Shown piece by piece: positions 21,835-55,027 of a DNA stretch of 64,000 nt (positions are counted from its first letter, which is position 1; each line of letters starts with the position of its first letter). The translations under genes and the position numbers were made by a program. Under the pieces are notes generated by a model, which was not told the DNA's origin, ran no database searches, and worked only from the letters and a program-made list of their open reading frames with translations. Source of the DNA: Streptomyces sp. NBC_00557 (GTDB taxonomy: Bacteria; Actinomycetota; Actinomycetes; Streptomycetales; Streptomycetaceae); assembly GCF_036345995.1 (NCBI RefSeq), contig NZ_CP107796.1, forward strand, positions 1,364,001 to 1,428,000, in the 5' to 3' direction.

Positions 21835-21880
21835 ATGTCGGAGCTGCTCACGGCGCGAGTACGGGCGAAGGGTGGAGCGG

Positions 21881-22810: not shown

Positions 22811-23577
22811 GGCTCTCCCCCACGGGTGCGCTCCGGCACTCCGGCAACCTCTTCGCGATGGCGCTGGACGTCGTCCGTACCCTTCCGCGACGGCCCTTCC
22901 AGGCACGGGAGTTCATCCAGCAGGCGTGGTTCGTCGCGAGCGTCACGATCCTGCCGACGGCGCTGGTCTCGATCCCGTTCGGGGCGGTCATCGCGCTGCA
23001 GATCGGCAGCCTGACCCGGCAGCTGGGCGCGCAGTCCTTCTCCGGTGCCGCGTCGGTGCTCGCGGTGCTGCGCGAGGCCTCGCCGATCGTCACCGCGCTG
23101 CTGATCGCCGGCGCGGGCGGCACGGCGATCTGCGCCGACCTCGGGGCGCGCAAGATCCGGGACGAGATCGACGCGATGCAGGTGCTCGGCATCGACCCGA
23201 TCCACCGGCTCGTGGTGCCGCGCGTGCTGGCGTCGATGGTCGTGGCGGTGCTGCTCAACGGCCTGGTGTCGGTGGTCGGCGTCGCGGGCGGCTACTTCTT
23301 CAACGTCGTCCTCCAGCACGGCACGCCCGGCGCCTACCTGGCGTCCTTCACCACCCTCGCCCAACTGTCCGACCTGTGGGCGGCGGAGATCAAGGCGCTG
23401 GTGTTCGGGGCCATCGCGGCGATCGTCGCCTCGTACAAGGGGCTGACGGCGCAGGGCGGCCCGAAGGGCGTGGGCGACGCCGTCAACCAGTCCGTGGTGA
23501 TCACCTTCATGTTGCTGTTCGTGACCAACTTCGTGATGACCGCGGTGTACTTCCAGGTCGTCCCGCAGAGGGGTTAG
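22807..23577 (+). CDS. MlaE/YrbE family ABC permease (YrbEA-like)
   Basis: This 256-aa permease of the Mce system has five or six membrane helices. It carries the family core LLIAGAGGTAICADLGARKIRDEIDAMQVLGIDP, which contains the EIDAMQVLG coupling motif that contacts the ATPase. The GTG start overlaps the ATPase stop. It forms the inner-membrane channel with the next gene product. Confidence 0.92.
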   Translation: MRLSPTGALRHSGNLFAMALDVVRTLPRRPFQAREFIQQAWFVASVTILPTALVSIPFGAVIALQIGSLTRQLGAQSFSGAASVLAVLREASPIVTALLIAGAGGTAICADLGARKIRDEIDAMQVLGIDPIHRLVVPRVLASMVVAVLLNGLVSVVGVAGGYFFNVVLQHGTPGAYLASFTTLAQLSDLWAAEIKALVFGAIAAIVASYKGLTAQGGPKGVGDAVNQSVVITFMLLFVTNFVMTAVYFQVVPQRG

Positions 23578-23580
23578 CCG

Positions 23581-24405
23581 ATGAGACCTCACAAAGTCCT
23601 CGACCGCCCCTTTCGATCGCTCGAAGAGCTGGGCGCCCAACTGTCCTTCTACGGGCGCTCGCTCGCGTGGACGGGCCGCACCCTGCGCCGCTACAAGAAG
23701 GAGATCCTTCGGCTGCTCGCCGAGGTGAGCTTCGGGCGGGGGGCGCTCGCCGTGGTCGGCGGCACGGTCGGCGTGATCGCGTTCCTGTCCTTCTTCACCG
23801 GCACCGAGGTCGGCCTCCAGGGCTACGCGGCCCTCAACCAGCTCGGCACCTCCAACTTCGTGGCGTTCCTGTCGGCGTACTTCAACACCCGGGAGATCGC
23901 CCCGCTGGTGGCCGGACTCGCCCTGTCCGCGACGGTCGGCGCCGGGTTCACCGCGCAGCTCGGCGCCATGCGGATCAGCGAGGAGACCGACGCGCTTGAG
24001 GTGATGGGCGTCCCGTCGCTGCCGTTCCTGGTGACGACCCGGATGATCGCCGGCTTCGTCGCGGTGATCCCGCTGTACGTGATCGGGCTGCTGTCCTCCT
24101 ACCTGGCCGCCCGCACCATCACCACCGGCTACTACGGGCAGTCGACGGGCACGTACGACCACTACTTCCACCAGTACCTGCCGCCCGTCGACGTGTTCTG
24201 GTCCTTCGGCAAGGTGATCGTCTTCGCCGTGCTGATCATCCTGGTGCACTGCTACTACGGCTACCACGCGAGCGGCGGCCCGGCCGGAGTCGGCGTCGCG
24301 GTGGGCCGGGCGGTGCGGACCTCGATCGTCGCCGTCAACGTCCTGGACTTCTTCCTGAGCCTCGCGATCTGGGGCGCCAACACGACCGTACGGATAGCGG
24401 GGTGA
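23581..24405 (+). CDS. MlaE/YrbE family ABC permease (YrbEB-like)
   Basis: The 274-aa second permease has a hydrophilic N-terminus (LEELGAQLSFYGRSLAWTGRTLRRYKKEI) followed by the MlaE fold with LSATVGAGFTAQLGAMRISEETDALEVMGVPSLPFLV. The EETDALEVMG motif matches the coupling helix of YrbEB proteins. It starts 3 bp after the YrbEA stop. Its own stop overlaps the first Mce gene (GTGA). Confidence 0.92.
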   Translation: MRPHKVLDRPFRSLEELGAQLSFYGRSLAWTGRTLRRYKKEILRLLAEVSFGRGALAVVGGTVGVIAFLSFFTGTEVGLQGYAALNQLGTSNFVAFLSAYFNTREIAPLVAGLALSATVGAGFTAQLGAMRISEETDALEVMGVPSLPFLVTTRMIAGFVAVIPLYVIGLLSSYLAARTITTGYYGQSTGTYDHYFHQYLPPVDVFWSFGKVIVFAVLIILVHCYYGYHASGGPAGVGVAVGRAVRTSIVAVNVLDFFLSLAIWGANTTVRIAG

Positions 24406-25664
24406 GAGCGGTGCGCACGCACAGATGGAGACTCAGGCTGTACGGCATCGCGTTCCTGGCCGTGCTCGCGCTGCTGCTGTCGCTCGCGGTGGCCGTCTAC
24501 CAGCAGGCGTTCACGCACGTCGTGCCCGTCACCCTGCAGGCCGGCACCCTCGGCAACCAGCTCGATCCGCGCGCCGACGTCAAGCTGCGCGGGCTGCTGG
24601 TCGGCGAGGTGCGCGAGGTGCACGCGGACGGCAGGAAGGCCACGCTCGACATCGCGCTCAAGCCGCAGTACGTGCCGTACATCCCCGCGGACGTGCGCGC
24701 GCGGCTGCTGCCCAAGACGCTGTTCGGCGAGAAGTACGTGGACCTGGTCCCGCCCGCGCGCACCTCTGCGCGGCCCATCCGCGCCGGGGACGTCATCACC
24801 CAGGACCGCACCAGGGCCGGCATCGAGGTGCAGCAGCTGATGAACGACCTGCTGCCGCTGCTGCGGGCCGTCCGGCCGGGCGAACTCAACGCCACACTCT
24901 CGGCGTTCGCCACCGCGCTGGAGGGCCGCGGCGACCGGATCGGCGACAACCTCACCCGGGTCGGGGCTTACCTGCGCCGGCTCAACCCGCACATGCCCTC
25001 CCTCAAGGAGGACATCTCGCGGTTCGCGGACGTCGCCGAGGTGTACGGCGACGCCGCGCCCGACCTGATGCGGATCCTGCGCAACACGGTCACCACCAGC
25101 CGGACGATCGTGGAGAAGCAGGACCGGCTGGCCGCGGGGCTCCGCTCGACCGCAGCCGTGGCGGGCACGGCGAACGACTTCCTGTCCGGCAACGGCGACC
25201 GGCTGATCACCCTGGGCCGGGTCTCCCGCCCCACGCTGGAGCTGTTCGCCCGTTACTCCCCCGAGTACCCGTGCCTCTTCCAGGGCCTGGTCCGGCAGGA
25301 GAGGGCGTCGGAGGACGCGTTCCGGGGCGGCGAGATGCGGATCACCCTCGAGGTGGTCCGGCCGCAGGGGGCGTACCGGCCCGGTGAGGAGCCGGTGTAC
25401 GGGGAGCGGTCGGGGCCGGACTGCCGTGGTCTGCCGCATCCGCCGGTGCCCGGGCCGAAGCCCCGTCTCAACGACGGTACGTCGGCCGGAGGTTCCGGCG
25501 GCGCACTCCCCGGAGGCGCCCCCGTGTCCGCCACCCGGGCCGAGCAGCGGGCCGTCGGCTCCCTCGTGGCCCCCGTCCTGGGCGTCCCCGCCGACCGGGT
25601 GCCGCCCGTGGCGACCCTGCTGTTCGGCCCGCTCGCGCGCGGAACGGCGGTGAGCGTCGCATGA
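24402..25664 (+). CDS. MCE family protein, first (MceA-like)
   Basis: The product has 420 aa. It has an N-terminal membrane anchor (LYGIAFLAVLALLLSLAVAVY), the MCE domain at about residues 40-120 (GNQLDPRADVKLRGLLVGEVREV; LLPKTLFGEKYVDLVPP), then a long helical region with repeated heptads as in Mce1A. The C-terminal ~70 residues are Pro/Gly-rich. Six such proteins are expected to assemble into a hexameric tunnel outside the membrane. The GTG start overlaps the permease stop. Confidence 0.92.
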   Translation: MRAVRTHRWRLRLYGIAFLAVLALLLSLAVAVYQQAFTHVVPVTLQAGTLGNQLDPRADVKLRGLLVGEVREVHADGRKATLDIALKPQYVPYIPADVRARLLPKTLFGEKYVDLVPPARTSARPIRAGDVITQDRTRAGIEVQQLMNDLLPLLRAVRPGELNATLSAFATALEGRGDRIGDNLTRVGAYLRRLNPHMPSLKEDISRFADVAEVYGDAAPDLMRILRNTVTTSRTIVEKQDRLAAGLRSTAAVAGTANDFLSGNGDRLITLGRVSRPTLELFARYSPEYPCLFQGLVRQERASEDAFRGGEMRITLEVVRPQGAYRPGEEPVYGERSGPDCRGLPHPPVPGPKPRLNDGTSAGGSGGALPGGAPVSATRAEQRAVGSLVAPVLGVPADRVPPVATLLFGPLARGTAVSVA

Positions 25665-26701
25665 GCAGGTCAGGAGCCCGGCAGACCGCCGCCCCGCTGA
25701 TCAAGTTCAGCCTCTTCGCCCTGGTCACGATCGCGGCGACGGCGCTGCTCGCCGCCACCGTCGTCAACATCTCCTTCACCCCGAAGGACACCTACCACGC
25801 GGTGTTCACCGACGTCACCGGGCTGGAGACCGGCGACGACATCCGGGTGGCCGGCGTGCGGGTGGGCCAGGTGGAGGACATCCGGATCAAGGACCGGACC
25901 CTGGCGGAGGTCACGTTCACCGTCGACGCCGACCGGCCGCTGCTCGCGGGAACCCACGCGGTCGTGCGCTACCGCAACCTGGTCGGGCAGCGGTACATCG
26001 CGCTCACCGAGGGCCCCGGCGACGTCACCGCCCGGCTGCGGCCGGGCGGCACCATCCCGCTGTCCAGGACCCGGCCGGCGCTGGACCTCAACGCCCTGCT
26101 GAACGGCTTCAAGCCGCTGTTCGCCGCGCTCAGCCCGAGCGACGTCAACCAGCTCGCCACCGAGATCGTCCAGACCCTCCAGGGCGAGGGCGGCACGGTG
26201 AACAGCCTCCTGGCGCACACGGCCTCGCTCACCACCACCCTCGCCGACCGCGACAAGCTGATCGGCTCGGTGGTCGACAACCTCAACACCGTCCTGGCGA
26301 CGCTCGACAAGCGCGGCTCCCGCTTCTCCGACCTGCTCACGCAGTTGCGCCGGCTGATCTCGGGACTGTCCGCCGACCGCAAGCCCATCGGGGAGTCGCT
26401 GGTGAGCATCGGCGACCTCGCCGACGTCACATCGGGGCTGCTGAAGGACGCGCGTCCGCCGCTGAAGGACGACATCGCCGGGCTCGGCGATCTGACCGGA
26501 ACGCTGAACAAGAACCAGAACACCGTGGAGGGCGTCCTGAAGCGGCTGCCGAACAAGCTCGACAAGCTGACGGGGACGGCCTCGTACGGCTCGTGGTTCA
26601 ACTTCTACCTCTGCGACTTCGACGGCCGGATCGTGCTGCCGAAGACCAAGCAGGTGATCACCCCGGAGCTGCACGTGGCGCGGGCGAGGTGTGGCGGATG
26701 A
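25661..26701 (+). CDS. MCE family protein, second (MceB-like)
   Basis: The 346-aa protein has a membrane anchor near residue 15 (FSLFALVTIAATALLAATVV), the MCE domain with TGLETGDDIRVAGVRVGQVEDI and VVRYRNLVGQRYIALTEG, and a helical tunnel region to about 300. The end GSWFNFYLCDFDGRI with a Cys and a final ARARCGG are typical of MceB. ATGA overlaps join it to both neighbours. Confidence 0.92.
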   Translation: MSRSGARQTAAPLIKFSLFALVTIAATALLAATVVNISFTPKDTYHAVFTDVTGLETGDDIRVAGVRVGQVEDIRIKDRTLAEVTFTVDADRPLLAGTHAVVRYRNLVGQRYIALTEGPGDVTARLRPGGTIPLSRTRPALDLNALLNGFKPLFAALSPSDVNQLATEIVQTLQGEGGTVNSLLAHTASLTTTLADRDKLIGSVVDNLNTVLATLDKRGSRFSDLLTQLRRLISGLSADRKPIGESLVSIGDLADVTSGLLKDARPPLKDDIAGLGDLTGTLNKNQNTVEGVLKRLPNKLDKLTGTASYGSWFNFYLCDFDGRIVLPKTKQVITPELHVARARCGG

Positions 26702-27942
26702 GACTGCGTGTCCCGGGACGGCGGCGCCGCCCCGAGCCCCTGGTGAAGGTACGGGTCCTGCCGCCGAGGCTGCCGAGAATCCCCCGGCTGCTGCCCAGGC
26801 GCACCCCCCGCCCCCAGCCGTTGGTCAGGGTACGGGTCCTGCCGCCCCGGCTGCCGGGACTCCCCAGGCTGCTGCCCAGGCGCGCGCCCCGCCCCCAACC
26901 CCTGGTCAAGGTGCGCGTCCTGCCGCCGAAGCTGCCCAGGATCCGGTTCGGGCGTCCACGCCTGAAGCCGTTCCGGGAGCGGAACCCGGTCGTCGTCGGC
27001 GCCGTCGGCCTCACCGTCCTGGCGCTGCTCACGTTCGCCGCCTTCAACGCCGACAGCCTGCCGCTGATCGGCGGCGGCGACACCTACAGCGCGGCCTTCT
27101 CCGAGGCCGGCGGGCTCAAGCCGGGCGATGAGGTACGGATCGCCGGGGTCAAGGTCGGCAAGGTCGAGGGCGTCGACCTGGACGGCGGCCACGTGAAGGT
27201 CACCTTCAAGGTGAAGGGCCACCCGGGGTTCGGCACCGACACGGGCGCGGCGATCCGCGTCAAGACGATCCTCGGCGCCAAGTACCTCGCCCTGTACCCG
27301 AAGGGGCCCGGCCAGCTGCGGCCGGGCAGTGAGATCCCGCTCGGGCGGACCGTGTCGGCGTACGACGTCGTACAGGCCTTCAGCGACCTGACGACCACCA
27401 GCGAGAAGGTCGACACGGACCGGCTCGCGAAGGCGCTGGACACCCTCTCCCTCACCTTCCGGGACTCCCCCGCGGAGGTGCGGGCGTCGATCAGGGGACT
27501 GTCACGCATCTCCCGGACCGTCGCCGCCCGTGACAAGGCGCTGCGCGGGCTCCTCCACCACGCGCACGGCGTCACCAAGGTGCTGGCCGGTCACACGAAG
27601 GACTTCTCCGCGCTGGTGAAGGACGGTGACGCGCTGTTCAAGGAGATCGACCAGCGGCGCGCGGCGATCCACACGCTGCTGAAGAGTTCCGCGCTGCTGG
27701 GCGTCGAGCTGTCCGGCCTGGTCGACGACAACAGCAGGGCGATCGGGCCCGCGCTGAAGAACCTCAACACGTTCCTGAAGATGCTCGAACGCAACCAGGC
27801 GAGCCTCGACCGCAGCGTCGAGCTCCTCGCGCCGTACGTGCGGCTCTTCACCAACACCCTCGGCAACGGCCGCTGGTTCGACTCCTACGTCCAGAACCTG
27901 GTCGCCGCCCCGGTCACGCCACGGACGGGAGGCACCCGATGA
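26698..27942 (+). CDS. MCE family protein, third (MceC-like) with basic repeat N-terminus
   Basis: The product has 414 aa. Unlike its paralogues, the membrane anchor (VVVGAVGLTVLALLTFAAF) starts only near residue 100. Before it lie three 27-residue repeats built on PLVKVRVLPPRLPRIPRLLP, very rich in Arg, Pro and Leu, that must be cytoplasmic. The MCE domain follows (SEAGGLKPGDEVRIAGVKVGKVEGV; KTILGAKYLALYPKG), then the helical region ending WFDSYVQNLV. The repeats could interact with the membrane surface, RNA polymerase or other anions; their role is unknown. Start overlaps the MceB stop. Confidence 0.9.
   Translation: MRLRVPGRRRRPEPLVKVRVLPPRLPRIPRLLPRRTPRPQPLVRVRVLPPRLPGLPRLLPRRAPRPQPLVKVRVLPPKLPRIRFGRPRLKPFRERNPVVVGAVGLTVLALLTFAAFNADSLPLIGGGDTYSAAFSEAGGLKPGDEVRIAGVKVGKVEGVDLDGGHVKVTFKVKGHPGFGTDTGAAIRVKTILGAKYLALYPKGPGQLRPGSEIPLGRTVSAYDVVQAFSDLTTTSEKVDTDRLAKALDTLSLTFRDSPAEVRASIRGLSRISRTVAARDKALRGLLHHAHGVTKVLAGHTKDFSALVKDGDALFKEIDQRRAAIHTLLKSSALLGVELSGLVDDNSRAIGPALKNLNTFLKMLERNQASLDRSVELLAPYVRLFTNTLGNGRWFDSYVQNLVAAPVTPRTGGTR
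26731..26973 (+). repeat. 81-bp tandem repeat (3 copies) encoding Arg/Pro-rich units
   Basis: Three in-frame 81-bp (27-codon) units start at 26731, 26812 and 26893. Copies 1 and 2 are closest; copy 3 diverges in its last ten codons as it runs into the anchor segment. Each begins with PEPLV or PQPLV and contains VRVLPP. Confidence 0.85.
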
Positions 27943-29048
27943 CCCGCAGACTCCTGGCCCTGTTCACCGCGCTCGCGGTCGTCGCGGGCCTCGCCGTCGC
28001 CCTCTGGCCGGGCCCCGGCCCGGTCCGCGTCACGGCCTACTTCCCGCGCACCGTCGGCATCTACCCCGGATCCGACGTCCGCGTCCTCGGCGTCCGCATC
28101 GGCGAGGTCAGGAAGATCACACCGCAGGGCGACCGGGTGAGGGTGGAGCTGGAGTACGACCGGGGCCGCAAGGTCCCCGCCGACGCGCGGGCCGCCATCA
28201 TCAACTCCTCGGTGGTCAGCGACCGTTACGTGCAGCTGCTGCCGGTGTACCGCAAGGGCGCGGTGCTGCGGGACGGCGACGTCATCCCCGAGTCCCGTAC
28301 CGCCGTCCCCGTCGAGCTGGACCGGATCTTCGACAGCCTGCACACCACCGCCGAGGCGCTCGGCCCGAACGGTGCCAACAAGCAGGGCTCGCTGTCCCGG
28401 CTGCTCGGGGTGAGCGCCGACAACCTCCAGGGGCAGGGCAGGAACCTGAACCAGACGGTGGCGGACCTGTCCCGGGCGGTCACCACGCTGTCCGACGGAC
28501 GCGGCGACCTCTTCGGCACCGTACGGAACCTGCAGGTGTTCACGGCGGCGCTCGCGGCGGACGACACCAGCGTGCGGTCGTTCACCACCGACCTCGCGAC
28601 CGTGGCCGGGCAGCTCGCCGGGGAGCGCGAGGATCTCGCCGCCGCGCTGAAGTACCTGGCCACCGCGCTCGGGGACGTGGCCGGTTTCGTCAGGGGCAAC
28701 AAGAAGGCCCTGACGTCGGACGTCAAGGGCCTGGCCAAGGTCACCAAGGTGCTCGTCGCCCAACGGTCCGCGCTGCAGGAGCTGTTGACCGTGGCCCCCA
28801 CCGGCCTGTCGAACCTGCAGAACGCCTACAACCCCGCCGCCGGCACCCTCGACACCCGCAACAACGCGCAGGGCCCGCAGGATCCGGCGTCCCTGCTCTG
28901 CTCGATCCTGAAGACGACCGGCGACGACCACGGCAGCTGCGCCGGGCTGAGGAAGCTCTTCGACTCCCTGCCCGAGGTGCCGTCGGCCCCGGCGTCGACG
29001 GGCACGGTCGACAAGACCCTCGGCGGGCTCCTGGGGGCACCGGCATGA
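27939..29048 (+). CDS. MCE family protein, fourth (MceD-like)
   Basis: The 369-aa protein has a short N-terminal anchor (LLALFTALAVVAGLAVALWPG), the MCE domain (VGIYPGSDVRVLGVRIGEVRKITPQGD; VVSDRYVQLLPVY), helical heptads through about residue 290, and a C-terminal pair of Cys (LLCSILKTTGDDHGSCAG) that could form a disulfide outside the cell. It overlaps both neighbours by 4 bp. Confidence 0.92.
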   Translation: MTRRLLALFTALAVVAGLAVALWPGPGPVRVTAYFPRTVGIYPGSDVRVLGVRIGEVRKITPQGDRVRVELEYDRGRKVPADARAAIINSSVVSDRYVQLLPVYRKGAVLRDGDVIPESRTAVPVELDRIFDSLHTTAEALGPNGANKQGSLSRLLGVSADNLQGQGRNLNQTVADLSRAVTTLSDGRGDLFGTVRNLQVFTAALAADDTSVRSFTTDLATVAGQLAGEREDLAAALKYLATALGDVAGFVRGNKKALTSDVKGLAKVTKVLVAQRSALQELLTVAPTGLSNLQNAYNPAAGTLDTRNNAQGPQDPASLLCSILKTTGDDHGSCAGLRKLFDSLPEVPSAPASTGTVDKTLGGLLGAPA

Positions 29049-30337
29049 GCGCGCGGCACCTGGGAAGGGCGGCCGCCTGGGCGGCGGCCGGCTCGCTGCT
29101 GCTGACCGGCTGCGAGTTCAACGGCTGGTACGACGTCCCGCTCCCCGGCGGCGCCGCCTCGGACGGCCACGCCTACCACGTCACCGTCGAGTTCCGGGAC
29201 GTCCTGGACCTGGTGCCGCAGTCGGCGGTCAAGGTCGACGACGTCACCGTGGGCGCGGTCGAGAAGGTGCGACTGGACGGCTGGCACGCGCGGGTCCGGC
29301 TCAGGATCGCCGACTCGGTGAAGCTGCCCGGCAACGCGGTCGCCGATCTGAGGCAGACCAGCATGCTCGGCGAGAAGTACGTCGCCCTGTCCCCGCCGGC
29401 CGGCACCGCTCCCGTCGGACGGCTCCACGACGGCGACGTCATCCCGCTGTCCCGCAGCGGCCGCAACCCGGAGGTCGAGGAGGTGCTGTCGGCCCTGTCC
29501 GCGCTGCTCAACGGCGGCGGGGTGGCCCAGCTGAAGACGATCACCGTCGAGCTGAACCAGGCCCTGAGCGGCCGCGAGGACCGGGTCAGGTCCCTGCTGA
29601 AGCAGCTCGACACGTTCCTCGGCGGCCTCGACCGCCAACGGGCGCAGATCGTGCGCGCGCTCGAGGGCGTCGACCGGCTGGCGAAGCGGCTGAAGAAGGA
29701 GAAGAAGACGATCGCCCTGGCCGTCGACACCATGCCGCCCGCCCTGAAGGCCCTCGCCGGCCAGCGCAAGGACCTGACGAAGATGCTCACCGCCCTGTCG
29801 ACACTCGGCAAGACCGGCACCAAGGTGGTGAACGCCTCCCACGACGACACCGTCGCCAACCTCAGGAAGCTCCAGCCCATCCTGCGGGAGCTGAACAAGG
29901 CGGGCGACGACCTGCCCAACTCGCTTGAACTCCTCACCACCTACCCGTTCCCGCGCAACGCGACGGACGCCGTCAAGGGCGACTACGTCAACCTGAGGAT
30001 CACCGCCGACCTCGACCTGGCGGACCTGTACGGCAACGTCACCGGCAAGCCGGGCAAGGGCGGGAAGTCCCCGGCCCCCAAGGCCCCGCACCTTCCCGGC
30101 CTCCCCACCCCCGCCCCGCTGCCGTCCGTGCCGTCCCTGCCGGGCACCCCGTCCGTGCCGCCCGTGCCCTCCACGCCCTCCGCCCCCGCCGTGCCCTCGA
30201 CGCCCTCCGGCGGCAGCACCCTGCTGTGCCCGCCGGTGTGCACCGCCGGCTACGGCACCGGGGCCGGCTCGCGTCGCCTCCCGCCCGGGACCGACCTCGG
30301 CCTCGCCGAGCTGATGCTGAAGGGGATACTGCCGTGA
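29045..30337 (+). CDS. MCE family lipoprotein, fifth (MceE/LprK-like)
   Basis: The 430-aa protein opens with a lipoprotein signal ending LLLTGC (lipobox Cys at residue 23), which is the expected feature of the fifth Mce position. The MCE domain follows (LVPQSAVKVDDVTVGAVEKV; TSMLGEKYVALSPP), then helical repeats, then a long Pro/Ser-rich tail (about residues 345-400) and a final PPVCTAGYG segment. It should be anchored by lipid to the outer face of the membrane. Confidence 0.92.
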   Translation: MSARHLGRAAAWAAAGSLLLTGCEFNGWYDVPLPGGAASDGHAYHVTVEFRDVLDLVPQSAVKVDDVTVGAVEKVRLDGWHARVRLRIADSVKLPGNAVADLRQTSMLGEKYVALSPPAGTAPVGRLHDGDVIPLSRSGRNPEVEEVLSALSALLNGGGVAQLKTITVELNQALSGREDRVRSLLKQLDTFLGGLDRQRAQIVRALEGVDRLAKRLKKEKKTIALAVDTMPPALKALAGQRKDLTKMLTALSTLGKTGTKVVNASHDDTVANLRKLQPILRELNKAGDDLPNSLELLTTYPFPRNATDAVKGDYVNLRITADLDLADLYGNVTGKPGKGGKSPAPKAPHLPGLPTPAPLPSVPSLPGTPSVPPVPSTPSAPAVPSTPSGGSTLLCPPVCTAGYGTGAGSRRLPPGTDLGLAELMLKGILP

Positions 30338-31608
30338 TCACACGTACGGTCAGGGCCCAGCTGCTCGCCTTCGCGGCCGTCACCGCCCTCGGGGTGTCGT
30401 ACGTCGGCGCCCGCTACACGGGCCTCGTGGACGACGTCCTCGACCGCGGGTACACCGTGCGCGCCGACTTCGCCGAGTCCGGGGGCGTCTTCCCCGGCGC
30501 CGAGGTCACCTACCGGGGCGTGCCGGTGGGCCGCGTGGGCGATCTGCGGCTGACCGGGTCCGGGGTGTCGGTGGCGCTGAAGATCGAGGACGGCGCGCCG
30601 AGGATCCCGGCGGACACGCTCGCGGTGGTAGCCGACCGTTCGGCGGTGGGCGAGCAGTACGTCGACCTCCAGCCTCGGCGGTCGGGCGGGCCGTACCTCA
30701 TGGACGGCAGCCCGATCCCGCGCAGCCGCACCCGGACCCCGCTGCCGGTCACCGACCTGGTCCTCAGCCTCGACCGGCTGGTCGAGTCGGTCGGCAAGGA
30801 CGATCTGCGGGTCACCGTGGACGAGCTGGGCAAGGCGTTCGCCGGCACCGGACCGAACCTGAGCCGGCTGGTGGACTCCGGCAACGCACTGGTGGAGTCC
30901 GCGTCCGCGTCGCTCCCCCAGACGGTCTCGCTGATCGAGGACTCGCGGAAGGTGCTCAGGACCCAGGCCGGCCAGGGCTCGGCCATCAAGTCGTTCTCCC
31001 GCGACCTGGCCACGCTCACCGCGCAGCTCAAGTCGAGCGACGGCGATCTGCGCCGGCTGATCGGCAACACGCCGCCCGCCGGCGAGCAGCTGGACTCCCT
31101 GCTGAAGTCCACCCGGCCGCACGTGCCGGTCCTGCTGGCCAACCTCATCAGCGGCGGCCAGATCACCCTGGCCCGGCTGCCCGGTGTCGAACAGGCCCTG
31201 GTGACGCTCCCGCTCACGGTCGCGGGCAGCTACACGGTCATCCCCGGCGACGGCACCACCCACTTCGGGCTGACCGTGAACGCCGACGACCCGCCCGCGT
31301 GCACCCAGGGCTACAACACCCGGCGGCGCGACCCCGCCGACACCGGCACGCGCCCGGCGAACACCGCCGCGCACTGCGCGGCACCGCGCGGCAGCAAGAC
31401 CTCGGTGCGCGGAGCCCAGAACGCGCCGGGCGCGACGACCGGTCCGTCCGGCGCGCACCGGGCCGCGTTCGTGGCGCCGTACGACCCGGAGACCGGCACC
31501 GCGACCGGCCCGGACGGATCGCCCGTCGAGATCGGCTCGACGGGCGGCGAACAGACCGTGTTCGGAAAGGAGTCCTGGCAATGGCTGCTCGTGGGACCGA
31601 TGGCGTGA
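30334..31608 (+). CDS. MCE family protein, sixth (MceF-like)
   Basis: The product has 424 aa. It has an N-terminal anchor (QLLAFAAVTALGVSYVGARY), the MCE domain (GGVFPGAEVTYRGVPVGRVGDL; DRSAVGEQYVDLQP), helical repeats to about residue 290, and the closing LVTLPLTVAGSYTVIPGDGTTHFGLTVN segment typical of MceF. The remaining tail is low-complexity. GTG start overlaps the lipoprotein stop; the 3' end overlaps the first Mce-associated gene by 28 bp. Confidence 0.92.
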   Translation: MITRTVRAQLLAFAAVTALGVSYVGARYTGLVDDVLDRGYTVRADFAESGGVFPGAEVTYRGVPVGRVGDLRLTGSGVSVALKIEDGAPRIPADTLAVVADRSAVGEQYVDLQPRRSGGPYLMDGSPIPRSRTRTPLPVTDLVLSLDRLVESVGKDDLRVTVDELGKAFAGTGPNLSRLVDSGNALVESASASLPQTVSLIEDSRKVLRTQAGQGSAIKSFSRDLATLTAQLKSSDGDLRRLIGNTPPAGEQLDSLLKSTRPHVPVLLANLISGGQITLARLPGVEQALVTLPLTVAGSYTVIPGDGTTHFGLTVNADDPPACTQGYNTRRRDPADTGTRPANTAAHCAAPRGSKTSVRGAQNAPGATTGPSGAHRAAFVAPYDPETGTATGPDGSPVEIGSTGGEQTVFGKESWQWLLVGPMA

Positions 31609-35663: not shown

Positions 35664-36803
35664 TCACCGCCGTCCGCCGAGAAAATCGAGGATGTGCCCG
35701 AAGACGTCCACGGCGGCGCCCCGGCCGAGGAATGTGTCCAGGTGGCCGTAACCGGGGATCTCGGTGTAGGAGACGTCCAACTGGGGCTGGCGGTCGGCGA
35801 GTACGTCGTGGCAGAGCCGCTGGGAGTCCAGCCACAGCCCGTTGTCGCTGCCCGCGAGGAGCAGCACGGGGGTGTCGATGCGGCCGGCCGCGTCCAGCGC
35901 ATTGGGCGGCAGGTCACGGTAGCGGTGGTCGGTTTCGTGCCAGCGGACCACGCTGCGGGCCAGCTCGATGCGGCGCAGGTGGGGCAGGATCCACAGCGGC
36001 GCGGGGCCGAGGAGGTCGGCGAGGCGGTCGTGGGTCGCCTCGGACAGGTTCTCGTGCAGGAAGAGCGAGGCGCCCGTGCCCCAGGCGGAGTTGTGCAGGA
36101 TCTGGCAGGTGGGGTCCGGGCAGCTCGCCTTCCGTGACGCCAGCGCGAACAGCGGGGTGTACTTCGACCACAGGCCCACCTTGCGGAAGTCGACCGGGAT
36201 GTGGTCGATCCGCGTCTTCAGCAGCTCTCCCGCCAGCGACATCCGCAGCGATGTCCGGCCGGCGAGCTTCGGCGTCAGGAACACACCCTGGGACACCACG
36301 CCGGCGAGGCCCGGCACCAGTCCCGCCGCCATGCTCAGGGACAGCGTGAGCGAGCCGATGCAGTGGGCGACCACGAACAGCGGGCGGTCGCCCGTGCACT
36401 CGCGGACGTACTTGACGGCCGCGGGGATGTCGTACAGGGCCACGTCGTCGTACGTGTACCTCTGGCCGGTCTCGTTGTACGGCAACCGGCAGCTGCCCCG
36501 CCAGTCCAGCAGCCAGGGCTCGTAGCCGTCGTCGAGGAGGACGTCGACCAGATTGCGGGTCTCCGGCAGCAGGAACATGTCGGCGGACGCGGTGTGTCCG
36601 TGCAGGATCAGCACGGCGGGACGGTCCGCGGCACCCGTGTGGATGCGGGTCAGGCCGAGGCGGACGCCGTCGTCCGCCCGGAAGGGGATCTCCTCGACAC
36701 GGGCCGGGTCGAGGCGGTGGCGGAGCGGACGCAGGGCCGCGGTGGTCCTGACCCGGCGCAGTGCCGGCCCGCCGGCGCGGGAGGTGGTCGTCCTGAAGAT
36801 CAT
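35664..36803 (-). CDS. Alpha/beta fold hydrolase with Cys nucleophile
   Basis: The product is a 379-aa alpha/beta hydrolase. The oxyanion region ILHGHTASADMF lies near residues 67-77. The nucleophile elbow reads VVAHCIGS, placing Cys148 where Ser is usual. The acid lies in LLLAGSDNGLWLD and the catalytic His in GYGHLDTFLG. The same type of domain is found fused to cholesterol-oxidase-like GMC oxidoreductases. Its ATG overlaps the stop of the thioester reductase gene, so it belongs to the PKS operon and may act on the released product, by hydrolysis or acyl transfer (inference). Confidence 0.85.
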   Translation of the reverse strand: MIFRTTTSRAGGPALRRVRTTAALRPLRHRLDPARVEEIPFRADDGVRLGLTRIHTGAADRPAVLILHGHTASADMFLLPETRNLVDVLLDDGYEPWLLDWRGSCRLPYNETGQRYTYDDVALYDIPAAVKYVRECTGDRPLFVVAHCIGSLTLSLSMAAGLVPGLAGVVSQGVFLTPKLAGRTSLRMSLAGELLKTRIDHIPVDFRKVGLWSKYTPLFALASRKASCPDPTCQILHNSAWGTGASLFLHENLSEATHDRLADLLGPAPLWILPHLRRIELARSVVRWHETDHRYRDLPPNALDAAGRIDTPVLLLAGSDNGLWLDSQRLCHDVLADRQPQLDVSYTEIPGYGHLDTFLGRGAAVDVFGHILDFLGGRR

Positions 36804-39373
36804 CGGTGGTGCTCCGTGAGGGTTGGGGTGCGGCGCAGGTCGAGCAGGTCCGCGGTGGCGCGGGCGAAGGGGCCGAGCAGGCCGCGGCCCATCTCCAGGC
36901 CGAACCAGGCGAGCCAGGTCAGCTTGGCGGCCCGCTTCTCCTGACCGGTAAGACGCGGGTCGACCTTGATGCCGTCGATCTGGTCGCGGACGTAGGAGTC
37001 CGCGGGCACGACGACCTCGCCGGCCACACTCGCCGGTTCGCCCTCGCGGCCGATCCGCACGGTCAGCGTGCGGGTCTGCCGCCACAGGTCGCGGCGGGCC
37101 CGGGCGTACTTGTGGCCCTCCAGCCACCAGTGGCCGCCGTCGGCGTCGCGCAACCGCAGCCGGTAGCGCAGCAGCTGGTGCCTGAGCCCGTGCTGCTGCG
37201 GGATCCCCTCCTCGGGGCGGACCCATAGGTCGCCGCGCTCGACGGTCAGCGGCTCGGGATGTACGGCGGTGCAGACGACCTCGCCGGTCACGTCCACCCT
37301 GCGCTCCTTCACCAGCTGGTACATGCTCGCGATGGAGAGCGTGAGCTCCATGGAGCAGGGGCTGTCGGCGGGGGCGCCGACCGGCCCCACGCTGCCCTGT
37401 GTCGTCTCCGAGAACCACAGATAGGGCTGGTCGTCCTTGTGCGGCAGCCGGGCGAGGCCGTCCTCGGCGAGCCGCTCGAAGGTCCTCAGCTGGGCCTGCG
37501 CGTCGTAGCGGGCCGCGGGCGGCAGCCCAAGAGCCTCGACCAGCGCGGCGGTGCGTGCGCCTTCGGCCACCGGGCCCTTCAGCGTCGCCTCGCACAGCTT
37601 GAGAGCAGTGGGGCTCTGCAACACCCTGGTGAGGAAGGCCAGTTCGGGTACCGGGTCGGCCTCCAGGCGGGCCAGGGCGTCGGTGCGCCACTCGTCCCAG
37701 TCCTGGACGTGCACGTGCATGCCGCCGAACGCCATGTCACGGACGACGTCGTCGAGGGTGTTGGGCACGCCGGTGAGGTTGTAGTCGTAGCCCCAGGCGT
37801 CGGGCTCGCAGACGGCGGCGACGGCGACCCGGCTCACCCAGTCCACCGGAGCCGCGTTCAGGTAGCGGAAGGCGGGTACGGTGCGGAAGCGGCCGAAGGC
37901 CGAGATCAGGCCGCTGCTGAGGTCCTGCGGGTTGCAGGCGCCGGTCTTCGTGTGGCCGCCGATGCCGCCGGGGCGCAGCGCGGTGACGACCAGGCCGTGG
38001 TCCCGGGCACGGCGCAGGGCGACCTCGGCGGCCCACTTCGACTGGTCGTAGCCCGAGATGAGCCGGTCGACGTGGGCGAGTGGGTCGTCCTCGCCCATGG
38101 AGGTGATGCCGACCTCGTTGAAGACGGCGATCGAGGAGATGTGGTGCAGCGGCTTGGGCCGCCCGGTGGCCGCGAGTTCGGCGAGGGTGAGCGCGCCGAG
38201 GACGTTGCTCGCCCGCAGCGACTGGTAGCCGCGCAGGAAGTCCACGGCCGCGGCGACGCCGACGACGCTGTCCAGTTCGTGGGCGAGCGTGTGCCACAGG
38301 TCGTCGGACAGGCCGAGCCGCGGCCGCCGGATGTCGCCGGGCAGCACGGTCACCCGGCGCCGCACCTCGGACGACCAGGGCAGCCGGTAACTCTTCAGCG
38401 CCTCGCCGAGCCAGGCGACGGCCGCCTTCTCGTCGGCCGCGCGCACCAGGCAATAGACATGCGCGTCGCTGTGCCGGAGCAGGTCGAGCAGCATGTGGCT
38501 GCCGAGGAAGCCGGTGGCGCCGGTCAGCAGGATCCGGCGGGGCGGCAGCGGCTCGGGCACGTCGGCGAACGGCAGGCGGTCGGCGAGGCTCAGATCGGCG
38601 AGGATCTGCTCGAGGTCCTCGTGGCGGGCCCTGGTATACCGTTCGTCGCCACTGCCGGCACGGGGGCGGAGCGCCGGTGAGGTGCGCGGGGTCGGGATCG
38701 GAAGGGTACGGGGGGCGGGGGGCGCGGGAGCGCCCGCCGCGGAGAGCGGAAGGGTGCCAGGGGCCGGGGACGGAACGGCGTCCCCGCCGGGAAGCGGCAG
38801 CGCGCCCGCGGTCGGGAGCGGAGCAGCATCCGCACCGGAGGACGACAGCGTCCCGGGGGCGGCGTCCGCGACAGCGTCCGCGCCGGCGGAGGGCGGAAGC
38901 GCACCGGCGGTCGGCGCCGGCAGAGCGCCCCGGGCGGTGGGCTCCTGGGTGTCCGTGGGCACGGGCGGCACGGCGGCACCGCTCGGCGCTTCCGACCCGG
39001 CCGCCTCCAGCCAGCGCCGGGCGAGGCTGATCGGACGGGCGTCGGCGAACACCTCGTCCAGGTCGAACTCGATGCCCAGCTCGCCCTCCAGCTCCGCGAC
39101 CAGCTCCACGGCGTGCACGGACGTGCCCCCCGCGTCGAAGAAGTCGGCGTCGGGCGACAGGTGTCCCGCGGGCAGGTAGCGGCCGGCCGCGGCGGCGATG
39201 GCCGCGGCCAGGCCGTCCACGTCCCGGGCCGGGGTGGGGGCGGCACCGGAACCCTCACCGGTGGCGGCCTGCATCACCCTGGCCAGCAGGTCGTCCACGC
39301 CGAGCCCGCCGCCACCGCGCTCGATCGCCTCGGCGGTCGCCCGCTGCCCGGAGTCCTCCGTCATGTCACGCAT
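36800..39373 (-). CDS. ACP-thioester reductase protein with extra C-terminal domain
   Basis: The product has 857 aa. Residues about 50-125 form a carrier domain, with Ser85 in DAGGTSVHAVEL as the phosphopantetheine site. Residues about 130-240 are an Ala/Pro/Gly-rich linker. Residues about 279-560 form an NADPH-dependent thioester reductase of the extended-SDR type (LLTGATGFLGSHMLLDLL, HISSIAVFNEVG, YDQSKWAAE). Residues about 640-800 (MELTLSIASMYQLV, VTGEVV, WLEGHKYARARRDLW) resemble the middle domain of the GMC oxidase/hydrolase fusions. It should accept a chain on its carrier and release it as aldehyde or alcohol. It follows the PKS with a 57-bp gap and overlaps the hydrolase gene. Confidence 0.88.
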   Translation of the reverse strand: MRDMTEDSGQRATAEAIERGGGGLGVDDLLARVMQAATGEGSGAAPTPARDVDGLAAAIAAAAGRYLPAGHLSPDADFFDAGGTSVHAVELVAELEGELGIEFDLDEVFADARPISLARRWLEAAGSEAPSGAAVPPVPTDTQEPTARGALPAPTAGALPPSAGADAVADAAPGTLSSSGADAAPLPTAGALPLPGGDAVPSPAPGTLPLSAAGAPAPPAPRTLPIPTPRTSPALRPRAGSGDERYTRARHEDLEQILADLSLADRLPFADVPEPLPPRRILLTGATGFLGSHMLLDLLRHSDAHVYCLVRAADEKAAVAWLGEALKSYRLPWSSEVRRRVTVLPGDIRRPRLGLSDDLWHTLAHELDSVVGVAAAVDFLRGYQSLRASNVLGALTLAELAATGRPKPLHHISSIAVFNEVGITSMGEDDPLAHVDRLISGYDQSKWAAEVALRRARDHGLVVTALRPGGIGGHTKTGACNPQDLSSGLISAFGRFRTVPAFRYLNAAPVDWVSRVAVAAVCEPDAWGYDYNLTGVPNTLDDVVRDMAFGGMHVHVQDWDEWRTDALARLEADPVPELAFLTRVLQSPTALKLCEATLKGPVAEGARTAALVEALGLPPAARYDAQAQLRTFERLAEDGLARLPHKDDQPYLWFSETTQGSVGPVGAPADSPCSMELTLSIASMYQLVKERRVDVTGEVVCTAVHPEPLTVERGDLWVRPEEGIPQQHGLRHQLLRYRLRLRDADGGHWWLEGHKYARARRDLWRQTRTLTVRIGREGEPASVAGEVVVPADSYVRDQIDGIKVDPRLTGQEKRAAKLTWLAWFGLEMGRGLLGPFARATADLLDLRRTPTLTEHHR

Positions 39374-39430
39374 GAGACCCTTTCCACGATGTGCACGTCC
39401 TTTCCCTTGCTCGGCAAGGTCCTTGCTCCT

Positions 39431-53131
<13,701 letters not shown>

Positions 53132-53194
53132 CTGGGCAGGTGTCCTCAAAGCAACGGTGACGCGGGCGGATTCCGCACGACCGCATGCGGCAGC

Positions 53195-53278
53195 GGCGTA
53201 CGGCTGACATCGGGTGACGTACGGCCGAAGTCGACGGACGTACGGCCGCGGAGGGCGGACGTGCGGCCGGCGCGGGCG
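53195..53278. repeat. Four 21-bp tandem repeats in FAAL-PKS spacer
   Basis: Four units start at 53195, 53216, 53237 and 53258, exactly 21 bp apart, each opening with GRCGTRCGGCYG (core GACGTACGGCCG). The spacing places each copy on the same face of the helix. They fill the 168-bp gap upstream of the PKS start. Confidence 0.8.
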
Positions 53279-53299
53279 GGCGCGCCGACGGCGGTGGGG

Positions 53300-55027
53300 T
53301 CATCCCGTGCCGGGCACGTCCACCAAGGCGAGGGTTCCGTCGAGGTAGGCCGCCCGGGAGTCGCGGCGCTGGATCTTCCCGCTGGACGTCTTCGGGATGG
53401 TGCCGGGGCGGACCAGCACCACCTCCCGCACCGACAGGCCATGGGCCTGGCCGATCGCGCTGCGCACCAGGTCGTTGATCTTCTCGGCCTCGCCGGCCGT
53501 CTCGGGGGCCACCTCGGCCACCACGACGACCTGTTCGCCCGCCATGCCGTCGGCGTCGACGGAGAACGCCGCGGTGCAGCCGGGCCGCAGTGCAGGGTGG
53601 GACAACTCCGCGGACAGCTCCAGGTCCTGCGGGTAGTGGTTGCGCCCGTCGATGACGACGAGGTCCTTCAGGCGGCCGGTGACGAACAGTTCGCCGTCAC
53701 GCAGGAAACCGAGGTCGCCCGTGCGCAGGAAACGGCCCTCGCGGCCGGACAGGGTGGCGCGGAAGGTCTCTCGGGTGGCAAGGGTGTTGCGCCAGTAGCC
53801 CCGGGCCACGCTCGCGCCGGCGACCCATATCTCGCCGACCTCGCCCTCGGGCAGTTCCTCCTGCCGTTCGGGGTCGGCGATCACCACGGTGATCCCGGTC
53901 CCGGGCCGGCCGCAGCCCACGGCGGCCGCGTCGGCCTCGCCGGCGTGCGGACCGGTCTCGGCGGCCTCCAGCAGGGTGGGCGGGGCGTCCACCGCACCGC
54001 CGGTGACCATCAAGGTGCCCTCGGCCAGGCCGTAGCAGGGATAGAACGCCTGATGGCGGAAGCCGGCCGCGCGGAAGGTCTCGCTGAACCGTCGCAGCGT
54101 GGCCGCGCGAACCGGTTCGGCGCCGTTGAAGGCGACCTTCCACGCGCTCAGGTCGAGGCTGTCGACCAGGTCGGCGGTGGCGTGCTTCAGACACAGCTCG
54201 TAGGCGAAGTTGGGGCCGCCGCTGGTGTGCGGCCGGTAACGGCTGATCGCGGTCAGCCAGCGACCGGGGCTCTGCAGGAAGTGCAGCGGCGAGAAGAGCG
54301 TGGCCGTGGCGCCCAGGTACAGCGTGTTCAGCACCGGGCCCATGAGGCCCATGTCGTGGTAGACGGGGAGCCAGCTGAGGATCAGTTCCCGGCCGTGCTC
54401 CGCGAGGGCGTCCGGGGTGTGCCCCATCCGCTCGGTGATGATCCGCTCGTTGTCCAGCAGGTTGCCGTGGGTGACCACCACACCGCGCGGGGCGGAGGTG
54501 GAGCCGGAGGTGTACTGGAGGAAGGCCACCGAGTCGGCGGTGAGGTCGGGGGCGTGCCAGGAGCCGGCCGCGTCGTCGGGAATGTCCTCGGTGGCGACGC
54601 GGGTGACCGCGTCCAGTCCGGGCAGGTCCTCGCGCCATGTGTCCAGGGCGCCGATGACGTCCCGGCCGCCGAGGATCACCTCGGCGCCGGAGTCGGCGAT
54701 CAGACGCTTCATCCGGATCAGTGCGCGGTGGTTCTGCGACCGTCCCTGCGGGGGCACGCCCGGCACGGCGACCACGCCGGCCGCGAGGCAGCCCAGGAAG
54801 GCGGAGATGAACTCCAGGCCGGGCGGATGGAGCAGCAGGGCGCGCGAGCCGGCCAGACCGCGGTCCTGGAGCCAGGCGGCGAGGGCCCGGGAGCGGTGGG
54901 CCAGCTGCCCGTAGGAGATCTCCTGAGTGTCCCCGTCGCAGTCGCCGGTGAGGAGGTACCGGTAGGCGGTACGGTCGGGCTGTTGCTGGGCGTGTACGGT
55001 CAGTAATTCGACCAGGGAACGAGCCAT
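53300..55027 (-). CDS. Fatty acyl-AMP ligase (FAAL)
   Basis: This 575-aa adenylate-forming enzyme carries FLQYTSGSTSAPRGV (A3), LPVYHDMGLMGPVLNTLY, GGPNFAYELC, CYGLAEGTL (A5), RTGDLGFLRDGELFVTGR (A7/A8) and a final KTSSGKIQRRDSR. The YHDMGL and PNFAYEL blocks are typical of FAALs rather than acyl-CoA ligases. It should activate a free fatty acid as acyl-adenylate and pass it to the N-terminal ACP of the PKS encoded next. The ATG at 55027 follows a G-rich site. It is the first gene of the four-gene minus-strand operon. Confidence 0.9.
   Translation of the reverse strand: MARSLVELLTVHAQQQPDRTAYRYLLTGDCDGDTQEISYGQLAHRSRALAAWLQDRGLAGSRALLLHPPGLEFISAFLGCLAAGVVAVPGVPPQGRSQNHRALIRMKRLIADSGAEVILGGRDVIGALDTWREDLPGLDAVTRVATEDIPDDAAGSWHAPDLTADSVAFLQYTSGSTSAPRGVVVTHGNLLDNERIITERMGHTPDALAEHGRELILSWLPVYHDMGLMGPVLNTLYLGATATLFSPLHFLQSPGRWLTAISRYRPHTSGGPNFAYELCLKHATADLVDSLDLSAWKVAFNGAEPVRAATLRRFSETFRAAGFRHQAFYPCYGLAEGTLMVTGGAVDAPPTLLEAAETGPHAGEADAAAVGCGRPGTGITVVIADPERQEELPEGEVGEIWVAGASVARGYWRNTLATRETFRATLSGREGRFLRTGDLGFLRDGELFVTGRLKDLVVIDGRNHYPQDLELSAELSHPALRPGCTAAFSVDADGMAGEQVVVVAEVAPETAGEAEKINDLVRSAIGQAHGLSVREVVLVRPGTIPKTSSGKIQRRDSRAAYLDGTLALVDVPGTG

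What the first reader, a model, noticed from the sequence alone, without database searches (positions are those of the whole stretch)
35664..55027. FAAL - PKS(C-FkbH) - ACP-thioester reductase - hydrolase: candidate undescribed acyl-glyceryl lipid pathway
The four genes are co-directional and close-packed. The sequence shows FAAL, then a PKS with an N-terminal ACP, two KS-AT-DH-KR-ACP modules, a condensation domain and an FkbH domain, then an ACP-reductase protein and a hydrolase. Known families: FAAL loads fatty acids on ACPs; FkbH makes glyceryl-ACP from 1,3-bisphosphoglycerate; C domains join acyl chains to amines or alcohols; thioester reductases release aldehydes or alcohols. Inference: a fatty acid is extended to an alpha-methyl dienoyl chain, joined by the C domain to a glyceryl unit carried on the ACP of the reductase protein, and released reductively as an acylated glyceraldehyde or glycerol. 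I know of no described pathway with this exact domain order.
Basis: partly seen in the sequence, partly recalled or inferred. Interest (0 to 1): 0.92.

Follow-up and report, generated by a model that had tools for sequence, protein, structure and literature searches.

The report
Core of the known foxicin synthase
These four Streptomyces-type genes are the core of an already described natural-product pathway, the one for foxicins, so the pathway is not new; but several of its enzymes look different from how they were labelled in print, and what the core itself makes is still unproven.

Summary
On the minus strand lie FAAL (53300-55018), a 4572-aa ACP-[KS-AT-DH-KR-ACP]x2-C-FkbH synthase (39431-53149), ACP-thioester reductase (36800-39373) and an alpha/beta-hydrolase-fold protein (35664-36803). 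The novelty claim fails: this is the foxBI-foxBII-foxBIII-foxEI core of the foxicin cluster of Streptomyces diastatochromogenes Tu6028 (PMC5318452, 2017), printed with the same domain order. The Tu6028 proteins are 79, 75-78, 76 and 86% identical and share the odd DH1 motif HxxxGxxxxS that the paper ties to foxicin's beta,gamma double bond; a foxBII mutant loses foxicins. So a short methyl-branched dienoyl chain is likelier than a long lipid.

Open is the C-FkbH-ACP-reductase end. By profile, FoxBI is FAAL-like (printed as an A domain) and FoxBIII an ACP-reductase with a C-terminal barrel-like domain (printed as PCP-TE). The 'esterase' FoxEI has Cys where lipases have Ser; barrel plus FoxEI match parts of GMC-oxidoreductase fusion proteins. 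The foxG sugar genes are not conserved. An acyl-glyceryl aldehyde or alcohol is possible but unshown. Here foxEII lies 6 Mb from the core.

The parts
53300..55018 (-). FAAL (foxBI orthologue), 572 aa; loads the starter acid on the N-terminal ACP of the PKS (inferred)
   Evidence: Pfam AMP-binding; fatty-acyl-AMP ligase models 317-428 bits (below their own cut-offs), amino-acid A domain TIGR01733 145 bits (cut-off 317); best PDB matches are entries named Polyketide synthase (7r7e-g, recalled as FAAL domains), then Saframycin Mx1 synthetase B and FadD32 fatty-acid-AMP ligases; 79% identical to FoxBI of Tu6028
39431..53149 (-). PKS-NRPS hybrid (foxBII orthologue), 4572 aa: ACP-KS-AT-DH-KR-ACP-KS-AT-DH-KR-ACP-C-FkbH
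   Evidence: 77.7% identical to the Tu6028 orthologue over 4553 aligned positions
52835..53092 (-). N-terminal loading ACP (approximate limits)
   Evidence: one of three PP-binding stretches; GLGS at residue 56
49280..50137 (-). DH1 (approximate limits) with HTVFGRTVVS, i.e. HxxxGxxxxS, the variant that the foxicin paper links to a beta,gamma double bond
   Evidence: of 7 loci in which the motif pattern was found, 6 have S and one has C
45050..46012 (-). AT2 (approximate limits), GHSLG and FASH; methylmalonyl by orthology with FoxBII
   Evidence: same motifs in FoxBII, domain 81% identical; loop pattern found in 42 of 47 loci, FASH in 41 of these (some loci are the same genome)
41030..42232 (-). 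Condensation domain (approximate limits), HHAVSDL
   Evidence: HH pattern found in 40 of 47 loci
39500..40462 (-). FkbH domain with HAD motif DGDETLW; the only FkbH match in the genome
   Evidence: motif pattern found in 42 of 47 loci
36800..39373 (-). ACP-thioester reductase-barrel protein (foxBIII orthologue), 857 aa
   Evidence: PP-binding and TIGR01746 above cut-off, no thioesterase match; ACP Ser85, NAD(P)-loop glycines and S413/S414, Y442, K446 invariant in 20 sequences (catalytic roles recalled)
36803..37447 (-). C-terminal domain X of the reductase protein, predicted mostly antiparallel beta, barrel-like (mean pLDDT 77)
   Evidence: no Pfam family above cut-off; similar to the middle part of a GMC oxidoreductase-X-hydrolase fusion and to a separate Pseudonocardia gene, weakly to Bernardetia; controls 77, 78; model; no specific fold match
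35664..36803 (-). alpha/beta-hydrolase-fold protein (foxEI orthologue), 379 aa, Cys148 at the nucleophile position
   Evidence: 86% identical to FoxEI; Cys and His kept in 58 of 58 loci; aligned with the GHSQG box of gastric lipase

Best explanation
A foxicin-type synthase core. Shown by sequence: it is the foxBI-foxBII-foxBIII-foxEI unit, orthologous to the Tu6028 genes. Most likely mechanism: (1) the FAAL activates a short, probably branched, carboxylic acid and loads it on the N-terminal ACP (inferred; the authors propose an isobutyryl starter from foxicin A's structure); (2) module 1 adds methylmalonate, KR reduces, and DH1 (HxxxGxxxxS) gives a beta,gamma double bond; (3) module 2 adds methylmalonate, and KR and DH2 give an alpha,beta double bond, yielding a 2,4-dimethyl-2,5-dienoyl chain (in foxicin A, by my count, the 2,4,6-trimethylhepta-2,5-dienoyl amide; steps 2-3 by orthology with a synthase whose disruption abolishes foxicins); (4) FkbH puts a glyceryl unit from 1,3-bisphosphoglycerate on the ACP of the reductase protein, and the C domain joins the chain to it (inferred; precedent for FAAL + FkbH + ester-forming C domain: vioprolide); (5) the reductase releases aldehyde or alcohol, and the barrel-like domain plus the Cys-type FoxEI act on that product, perhaps as an acyltransferase (inferred).
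For: Identical domain order in print, with gene sizes of 583, 945, 378 and 259 aa for foxBI, foxBIII, foxEI and foxEII that I recovered exactly from the Tu6028 contig (foxBII is printed as 4807 aa, and I took its frame without settling a start). Identities 79/75-78/76/86%. Same AT, DH, KR, C and FkbH motifs in FoxBII. foxBII disruption abolishes foxicins (section read). The foxicin A side chain fits two methylmalonyl modules and the DH1 variant. FoxBI of Tu6028 scores far better as a FAAL than as an A domain, and FoxBIII as a thioester reductase above cut-off, with no thioesterase listed. Vioprolide precedent from a review passage.
Against: The glyceryl, C-domain and reductive steps are untested for any fox-type protein in what I read. 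Foxicin A carries an amide on an aminoquinone, with no glyceryl ester, so either the C3 unit is rebuilt or the published product does not reflect steps 4-5. The foxicin link rests on one single-crossover mutant. FoxGI and FoxA lie near none of the six other regions examined, and FoxGII/GIII near only two other loci, so the aminoquinone route is unexplained and the product here may differ. No FAAL model reaches its curated cut-off, and FAAL substrates cannot be read from sequence.
Confidence: 0.72

Rival explanations
1. One reading: an undescribed long-chain acyl-glyceryl lipid pathway that releases an acylated glyceraldehyde or glycerol.
For: FAAL, C, FkbH and reductase domains are all there with their motifs. 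The Rhodococcus plasmid version lies beside two glycosyltransferase genes, ABC-transporter genes and ccrA, which would suit a glycolipid.
Against: The same domain order is published and tied to foxicin, a small aminoquinone with a C10 side chain. Nothing shows a long-chain substrate. The adjacent mce operon was not found beside the core in the other fetched loci.
Confidence: 0.12
2. The published foxicin route: FoxBI as an amino-acid A domain, FoxBIII as PCP-TE with hydrolytic release, FoxG enzymes supplying bisphosphoglycerate, and an amino acid plus the glyceryl unit forming the quinone part.
For: Proposed by the authors from structure and annotation.
Against: FoxBI of Tu6028 scores 429 bits with a fatty-acid-AMP ligase model (cut-off 775, not reached) against 142 for TIGR01733 (cut-off 317), and FoxBIII has a reductase above cut-off and no thioesterase match. 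FoxGII and FoxGIII were found near only L012 and L068 besides Tu6028 and look to me like part of a sugar-use operon (a recalled judgement). FoxGI and FoxA are near none of the 5 other full regions nor the window's surroundings.
Confidence: 0.1
3. The C3 unit from FkbH leaves the reductase as an aldehyde and is condensed with a second C3 unit to build the C6 aminoquinone ring, the acyl chain moving to nitrogen.
For: It would account for the FkbH, reductase and ring of foxicin at once. It is my own proposal, supported by no call.
Against: No gene other than foxEII recurs beside the core in most loci; an asparagine-synthase-like gene recurs in a minority.
Confidence: 0.06

Closest known systems
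Foxicin biosynthetic gene cluster (fox), Streptomyces diastatochromogenes Tu6028 (PMC5318452; MIBiG BGC0001598 as cited in a passage of PMC13391507)
   Same: Gene order foxBI-foxBII-foxBIII-foxEI, domain order, AT/DH/KR/C/FkbH motifs, the DH1 HxxxGxxxxS variant, 75-86% identity
   Different: foxEII is not adjacent (an 83% identical copy is 6 Mb away). FoxGI, FoxA, FoxGII and FoxGIII have no match in the 124 kb examined around the core. No product is known here. My domain labels for FoxBI, FoxBIII and FoxEI differ from the printed ones.
Vioprolide acyl-glycerate assembly (review passage in PMC8949500)
   Same: FAAL-loaded acyl chain joined by an ester-forming C domain to a glycerate placed by an FkbH domain
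   Different: In vioprolide a peptide follows; here two PKS modules precede the C domain and a reductase follows. No sequence comparison was made.
GMC oxidoreductase-X-alpha/beta hydrolase fusion proteins (Azospirillum, Bernardetia; separate genes in Pseudonocardia)
   Same: A domain X-like stretch and a Cys-type alpha/beta hydrolase occur with a GMC oxidoreductase
   Different: There the partner is a GMC oxidoreductase; here it is an ACP-thioester reductase. The function of those fusions is unknown to me.
Rhodococcus plasmid version (L001)
   Same: FAAL, KS-AT-DH-KR-ACP-C-FkbH, thioester reductase-X (about 60% identical over the 69% covered) and the Cys-type hydrolase (66%)
   Different: FAAL is fused to the first module, which shows no DH; transposase-like reading frames lie between the two PKS genes of PD04 (my reading); ccrA and glycosyltransferase genes follow

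Membership tests
Foxicin-type synthase core (foxBI-foxBII-foxBIII-foxEI) | Domain order AMP ligase; ACP-(KS-AT-DH-KR-ACP)2-C-FkbH; carrier protein plus release domain; alpha/beta hydrolase | tested here: met
Foxicin-type synthase core (foxBI-foxBII-foxBIII-foxEI) | Sequence identity in the published range (73-96%) to the fox genes | tested here: met
   79, 75-78, 76 and 86% to the Tu6028 proteins
Foxicin-type synthase core (foxBI-foxBII-foxBIII-foxEI) | DH1 HxxxGxxxxS motif linked by the authors to the beta,gamma double bond | tested here: met
   HTVFGRTVVS in window and FoxBII
Complete fox gene block (with foxEII adjacent) | foxEII next to foxEI (the paper says next to each other in the 21 strains, and elsewhere 'in most of the strains') | tested here: not met
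   No foxEII in the window; an 83% identical copy at G000:C1:7474615
Complete 41-gene fox cluster | FoxGI, FoxA, FoxGII and FoxGIII nearby | tested here: not met
   No match in the window or in L073-L075. The wider comparison suggests they are not part of the conserved pathway.
Foxicin producers | Makes foxicin A or an analogue | not testable with these tools
   needs culture and LC-MS
Fatty acyl-AMP ligases | Best and clearly better match to FAAL models and structures than to amino-acid A domains or CoA ligases | tested here: met
   note that no FAAL model reached its own curated cut-off
FkbH glyceryl transferase/phosphatase | FkbH profile above curated cut-off with HAD-type motif | tested here: met
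   408 bits against a cut-off of 147; DGDETLW
FkbH glyceryl transferase/phosphatase | Loads glyceryl from 1,3-bisphosphoglycerate on an ACP | not testable with these tools
   needs an assay
Serine esterase (printed label of FoxEI) | Ser in the GxSxG nucleophile elbow | tested here: not met
   Cys in 58 of 58 loci; aligned with GHSQG of gastric lipase
PHA synthase-like Cys alpha/beta hydrolases | Profile match above cut-off | tested here: not met
   PHA_synth_I 21.5 bits against a cut-off of 623; PHA synthase in the PDB at E 0.13. Works-like is open, membership not claimed; that PHA synthases use Cys is recalled.

The most novel reading that the evidence does not exclude
The four-gene core, and not the 41-gene fox cluster, is the real pathway. 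It makes an acyl-glyceryl thioester (FAAL-PKS chain joined by C to FkbH-derived glyceryl) that is released reductively and handed to a barrel domain plus a Cys-type alpha/beta-hydrolase acyltransferase, a module shared with GMC oxidoreductase fusions. Foxicin would then be a downstream or side product of one strain.
Probability: 0.27. Interest if true: 0.6.

Novelty: new member of a known kind. Interest (0 to 1): 0.36.

Why it matters
It stops a published pathway from being counted as new, and it sharpens it: the unit found conserved here shrinks from 41 genes to four or five; two of the three assembly-line proteins and the 'esterase' look mis-labelled in print; and a related unit exists on Rhodococcus plasmids although the paper detected none outside Streptomyces. 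The route from C-FkbH-ACP-reductase to product becomes directly testable with a small gene set.
Full report
Observation. Pfam and NCBIfam confirm every domain named: an AMP ligase; two KS-AT-DH-KR modules with three carrier stretches; condensation domain; FkbH (TIGR01686, 408 bits, cut-off 147); carrier plus thioester reductase (TIGR01746, 244 bits, cut-off 213); and an alpha/beta-hydrolase fold. The AMP ligase is called a FAAL on relative scores: 317-428 bits with fatty-acyl-AMP ligase models, none reaching its curated cut-off, against 145 with the amino-acid A-domain model; the best solved relatives are of the FAAL kind (labels partly recalled). The FkbH match is the only one in the genome.

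Known cluster. A full-text search led to PMC5318452 (abstract and sections 20-24 and 26 read). It describes the foxicin cluster of S. diastatochromogenes Tu6028: foxBI (583 aa, 'A domain'), foxBII (4807 aa, ACP-KS-AT-DH-KR-ACP-KS-AT-DH-KR-ACP-C-FkbH), foxBIII (945 aa, 'PCP-TE'), foxEI (378 aa, esterase) and foxEII (259 aa, carboxylesterase), and similar clusters in 21 further Streptomyces. A single-crossover foxBII mutant no longer makes foxicins. Foxicin A is an aminobenzoquinone whose amide side chain is a trimethyl-heptadienoyl group. By my count of the printed numbering, in which NH is 1'', this is 2,4,6-trimethylhepta-2,5-dienoyl.

Orthology. A genome scan with the reductase protein returned 40 loci, all titled Streptomyces, one of them (L011) the Tu6028 contig (this kind of scan reaches close relatives only). 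From Tu6028 I recovered proteins of 583, 945, 378 and 259 aa, the printed sizes. Window against Tu6028: FAAL 79%, PKS 77.7% over 4553 aligned positions (75% in BLASTP's best segment), reductase protein 76%, hydrolase 86%. Of the six other PKS proteins taken, four are full length and usable (Tu6028, cellostaticus, olivochromogenes, regalis); they agree with the window at the catalytic motifs shown, with small differences such as LAD for LDD in KR1 of two. The DH1 HxxxGxxxxS variant that the authors tie to the beta,gamma double bond is in the window too. AT1 carries YASH, AT2 FASH; FoxBII has the same pair and its product shows two methyl branches, so both are best read as methylmalonyl.

What the printed route leaves open. 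Tested directly on the Tu6028 proteins, FoxBI scores 429 bits with a fatty-acid-AMP ligase model (cut-off 775, not reached) against 142 for the amino-acid A domain (cut-off 317), and FoxBIII holds a thioester reductase above cut-off and no thioesterase match. The foxG/foxA genes, of which the foxG genes were thought to supply the C3 unit, are not conserved: FoxGII and FoxGIII were found only near L012 and L068 besides Tu6028, and FoxGI and FoxA near none of the five other full regions nor the 124 kb around the window's core (the other scan loci do not reach upstream of the FAAL and say nothing about FoxGI and FoxA). The conserved unit is foxBI-BII-BIII-EI, usually with foxEII: foxEII is beside the core in 34 of 39 other scan loci.

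Two features that the paper does not mention in what I read. I ran no literature search aimed at them; of the eight papers that hold the word foxicin I read sections of one and passages of two. First, FoxEI has Cys where gastric lipase has the nucleophile Ser; Cys and the His are kept in 58 of 58 loci, some of which are the same genome. Second, the C-terminal 215 residues of the reductase protein form a domain without a Pfam family above cut-off. It is similar to the middle part of a 1143-aa Azospirillum GMC oxidoreductase-X-hydrolase protein (E 2.8e-7, probability 93%, 32% over 171 columns) and to a separate Pseudonocardia gene that adjoins a GMC oxidoreductase gene, which in turn adjoins a FoxEI-like gene (E 2.3e-5, probability 76%); Bernardetia is weak (E 0.002, probability 14%). 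Controls with the FAAL and with a plain GMC oxidoreductase gave E 0.68 and 0.65. The predicted model (mean pLDDT 77) is mostly antiparallel beta and barrel-like. So barrel and FoxEI look like a module that also travels with another oxidoreductase, which would suit reductive release by FoxBIII. That last step is inference.

Mechanism. Steps by orthology: short branched starter, two methylmalonyl extensions, non-conjugated dienoyl chain. Steps by family knowledge: FAAL loading; FkbH glyceryl transfer (the foxicin authors cite OzmB and tetronate work; vioprolide precedent in a review passage); C-domain ester bond; reduction. None of the latter has been assayed for a fox-type protein in anything I read. 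Foxicin's amide-linked quinone does not follow from these domains, which is the real open question.

Setting. In this genome foxEII (83% identical to that of Tu6028) lies at C1:7474615, 6 Mb from the core. It stands there between homologues of genes that flank the complete unit in S. cellostaticus, so the place looks like that unit's site without the core. Five scan loci lacked foxEII in the stretch held (L003, L004, L010, L031, and L007 whose contig ends there); all five genomes have it elsewhere (the copy behind L007 shows one TAG in the matched stretch, perhaps its end). As a control, 10 of 60 other same-genus genomes have foxEII; of these, 5 have core genes beside it, 4 do not, and 1 contig ends. 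Those 5 of 60 are a lower bound for the core in a small sample, above the 2.6% printed in 2017. On Rhodococcus plasmids a related unit exists (reductase plus domain X in 5 records; one of them is in two pieces with an IS3 transposase annotated), with FAAL fused to the first module in PD04, no DH there, and ccrA and glycosyltransferase genes following, although the paper detected none outside Streptomyces.

Verdict. Known kind, new member. Interest lies in correcting the printed labels and in the untested C-FkbH-reductase end.

Noticed in passing
window 21872-31608 (+): mce-type operon (ATPase, two MlaE permeases, six Mce proteins) a few kb from the fox core; no Mce or permease gene of it was found in the other fetched loci.
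   Followed up: partly
L086 (G000:C1:7465000-7484999): foxEII stands alone between homologues of genes that flank the complete fox unit in S. cellostaticus, followed by an asparagine-synthase-like gene; the core seems to have left this place or been lost and regained.
   Followed up: partly
L001:3710-29876 (Rhodococcus sp. PD04 plasmid): Fox-like unit outside Streptomyces with fused FAAL-PKS, transposase-like reading frames between the PKS genes (my reading, not in the gene table), ccrA, two glycosyltransferase genes and ABC-transporter genes.
   Followed up: partly
window 35664-36803; L079-L081: Alpha/beta-hydrolase proteins with Cys in place of the nucleophile Ser, joined or adjacent to GMC oxidoreductases and a barrel-like domain without a family, in Actinomycetota, Pseudomonadota and Bacteroidota.
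   Followed up: partly
L056:15310-17987 (Tu6028): FoxRV/FoxGII/FoxGIII look like a regulator, sugar isomerase and aldolase of a sugar-use operon that happens to lie near the fox core; FoxGII and FoxGIII were found only in L012 and L068 besides.
   Followed up: partly
G000:C1:379000-562000 and C2:79000-149000: 39 further ketosynthase matches (30 and 9) in two dense stretches, i.e. large modular PKS clusters elsewhere in this genome.
   Followed up: no
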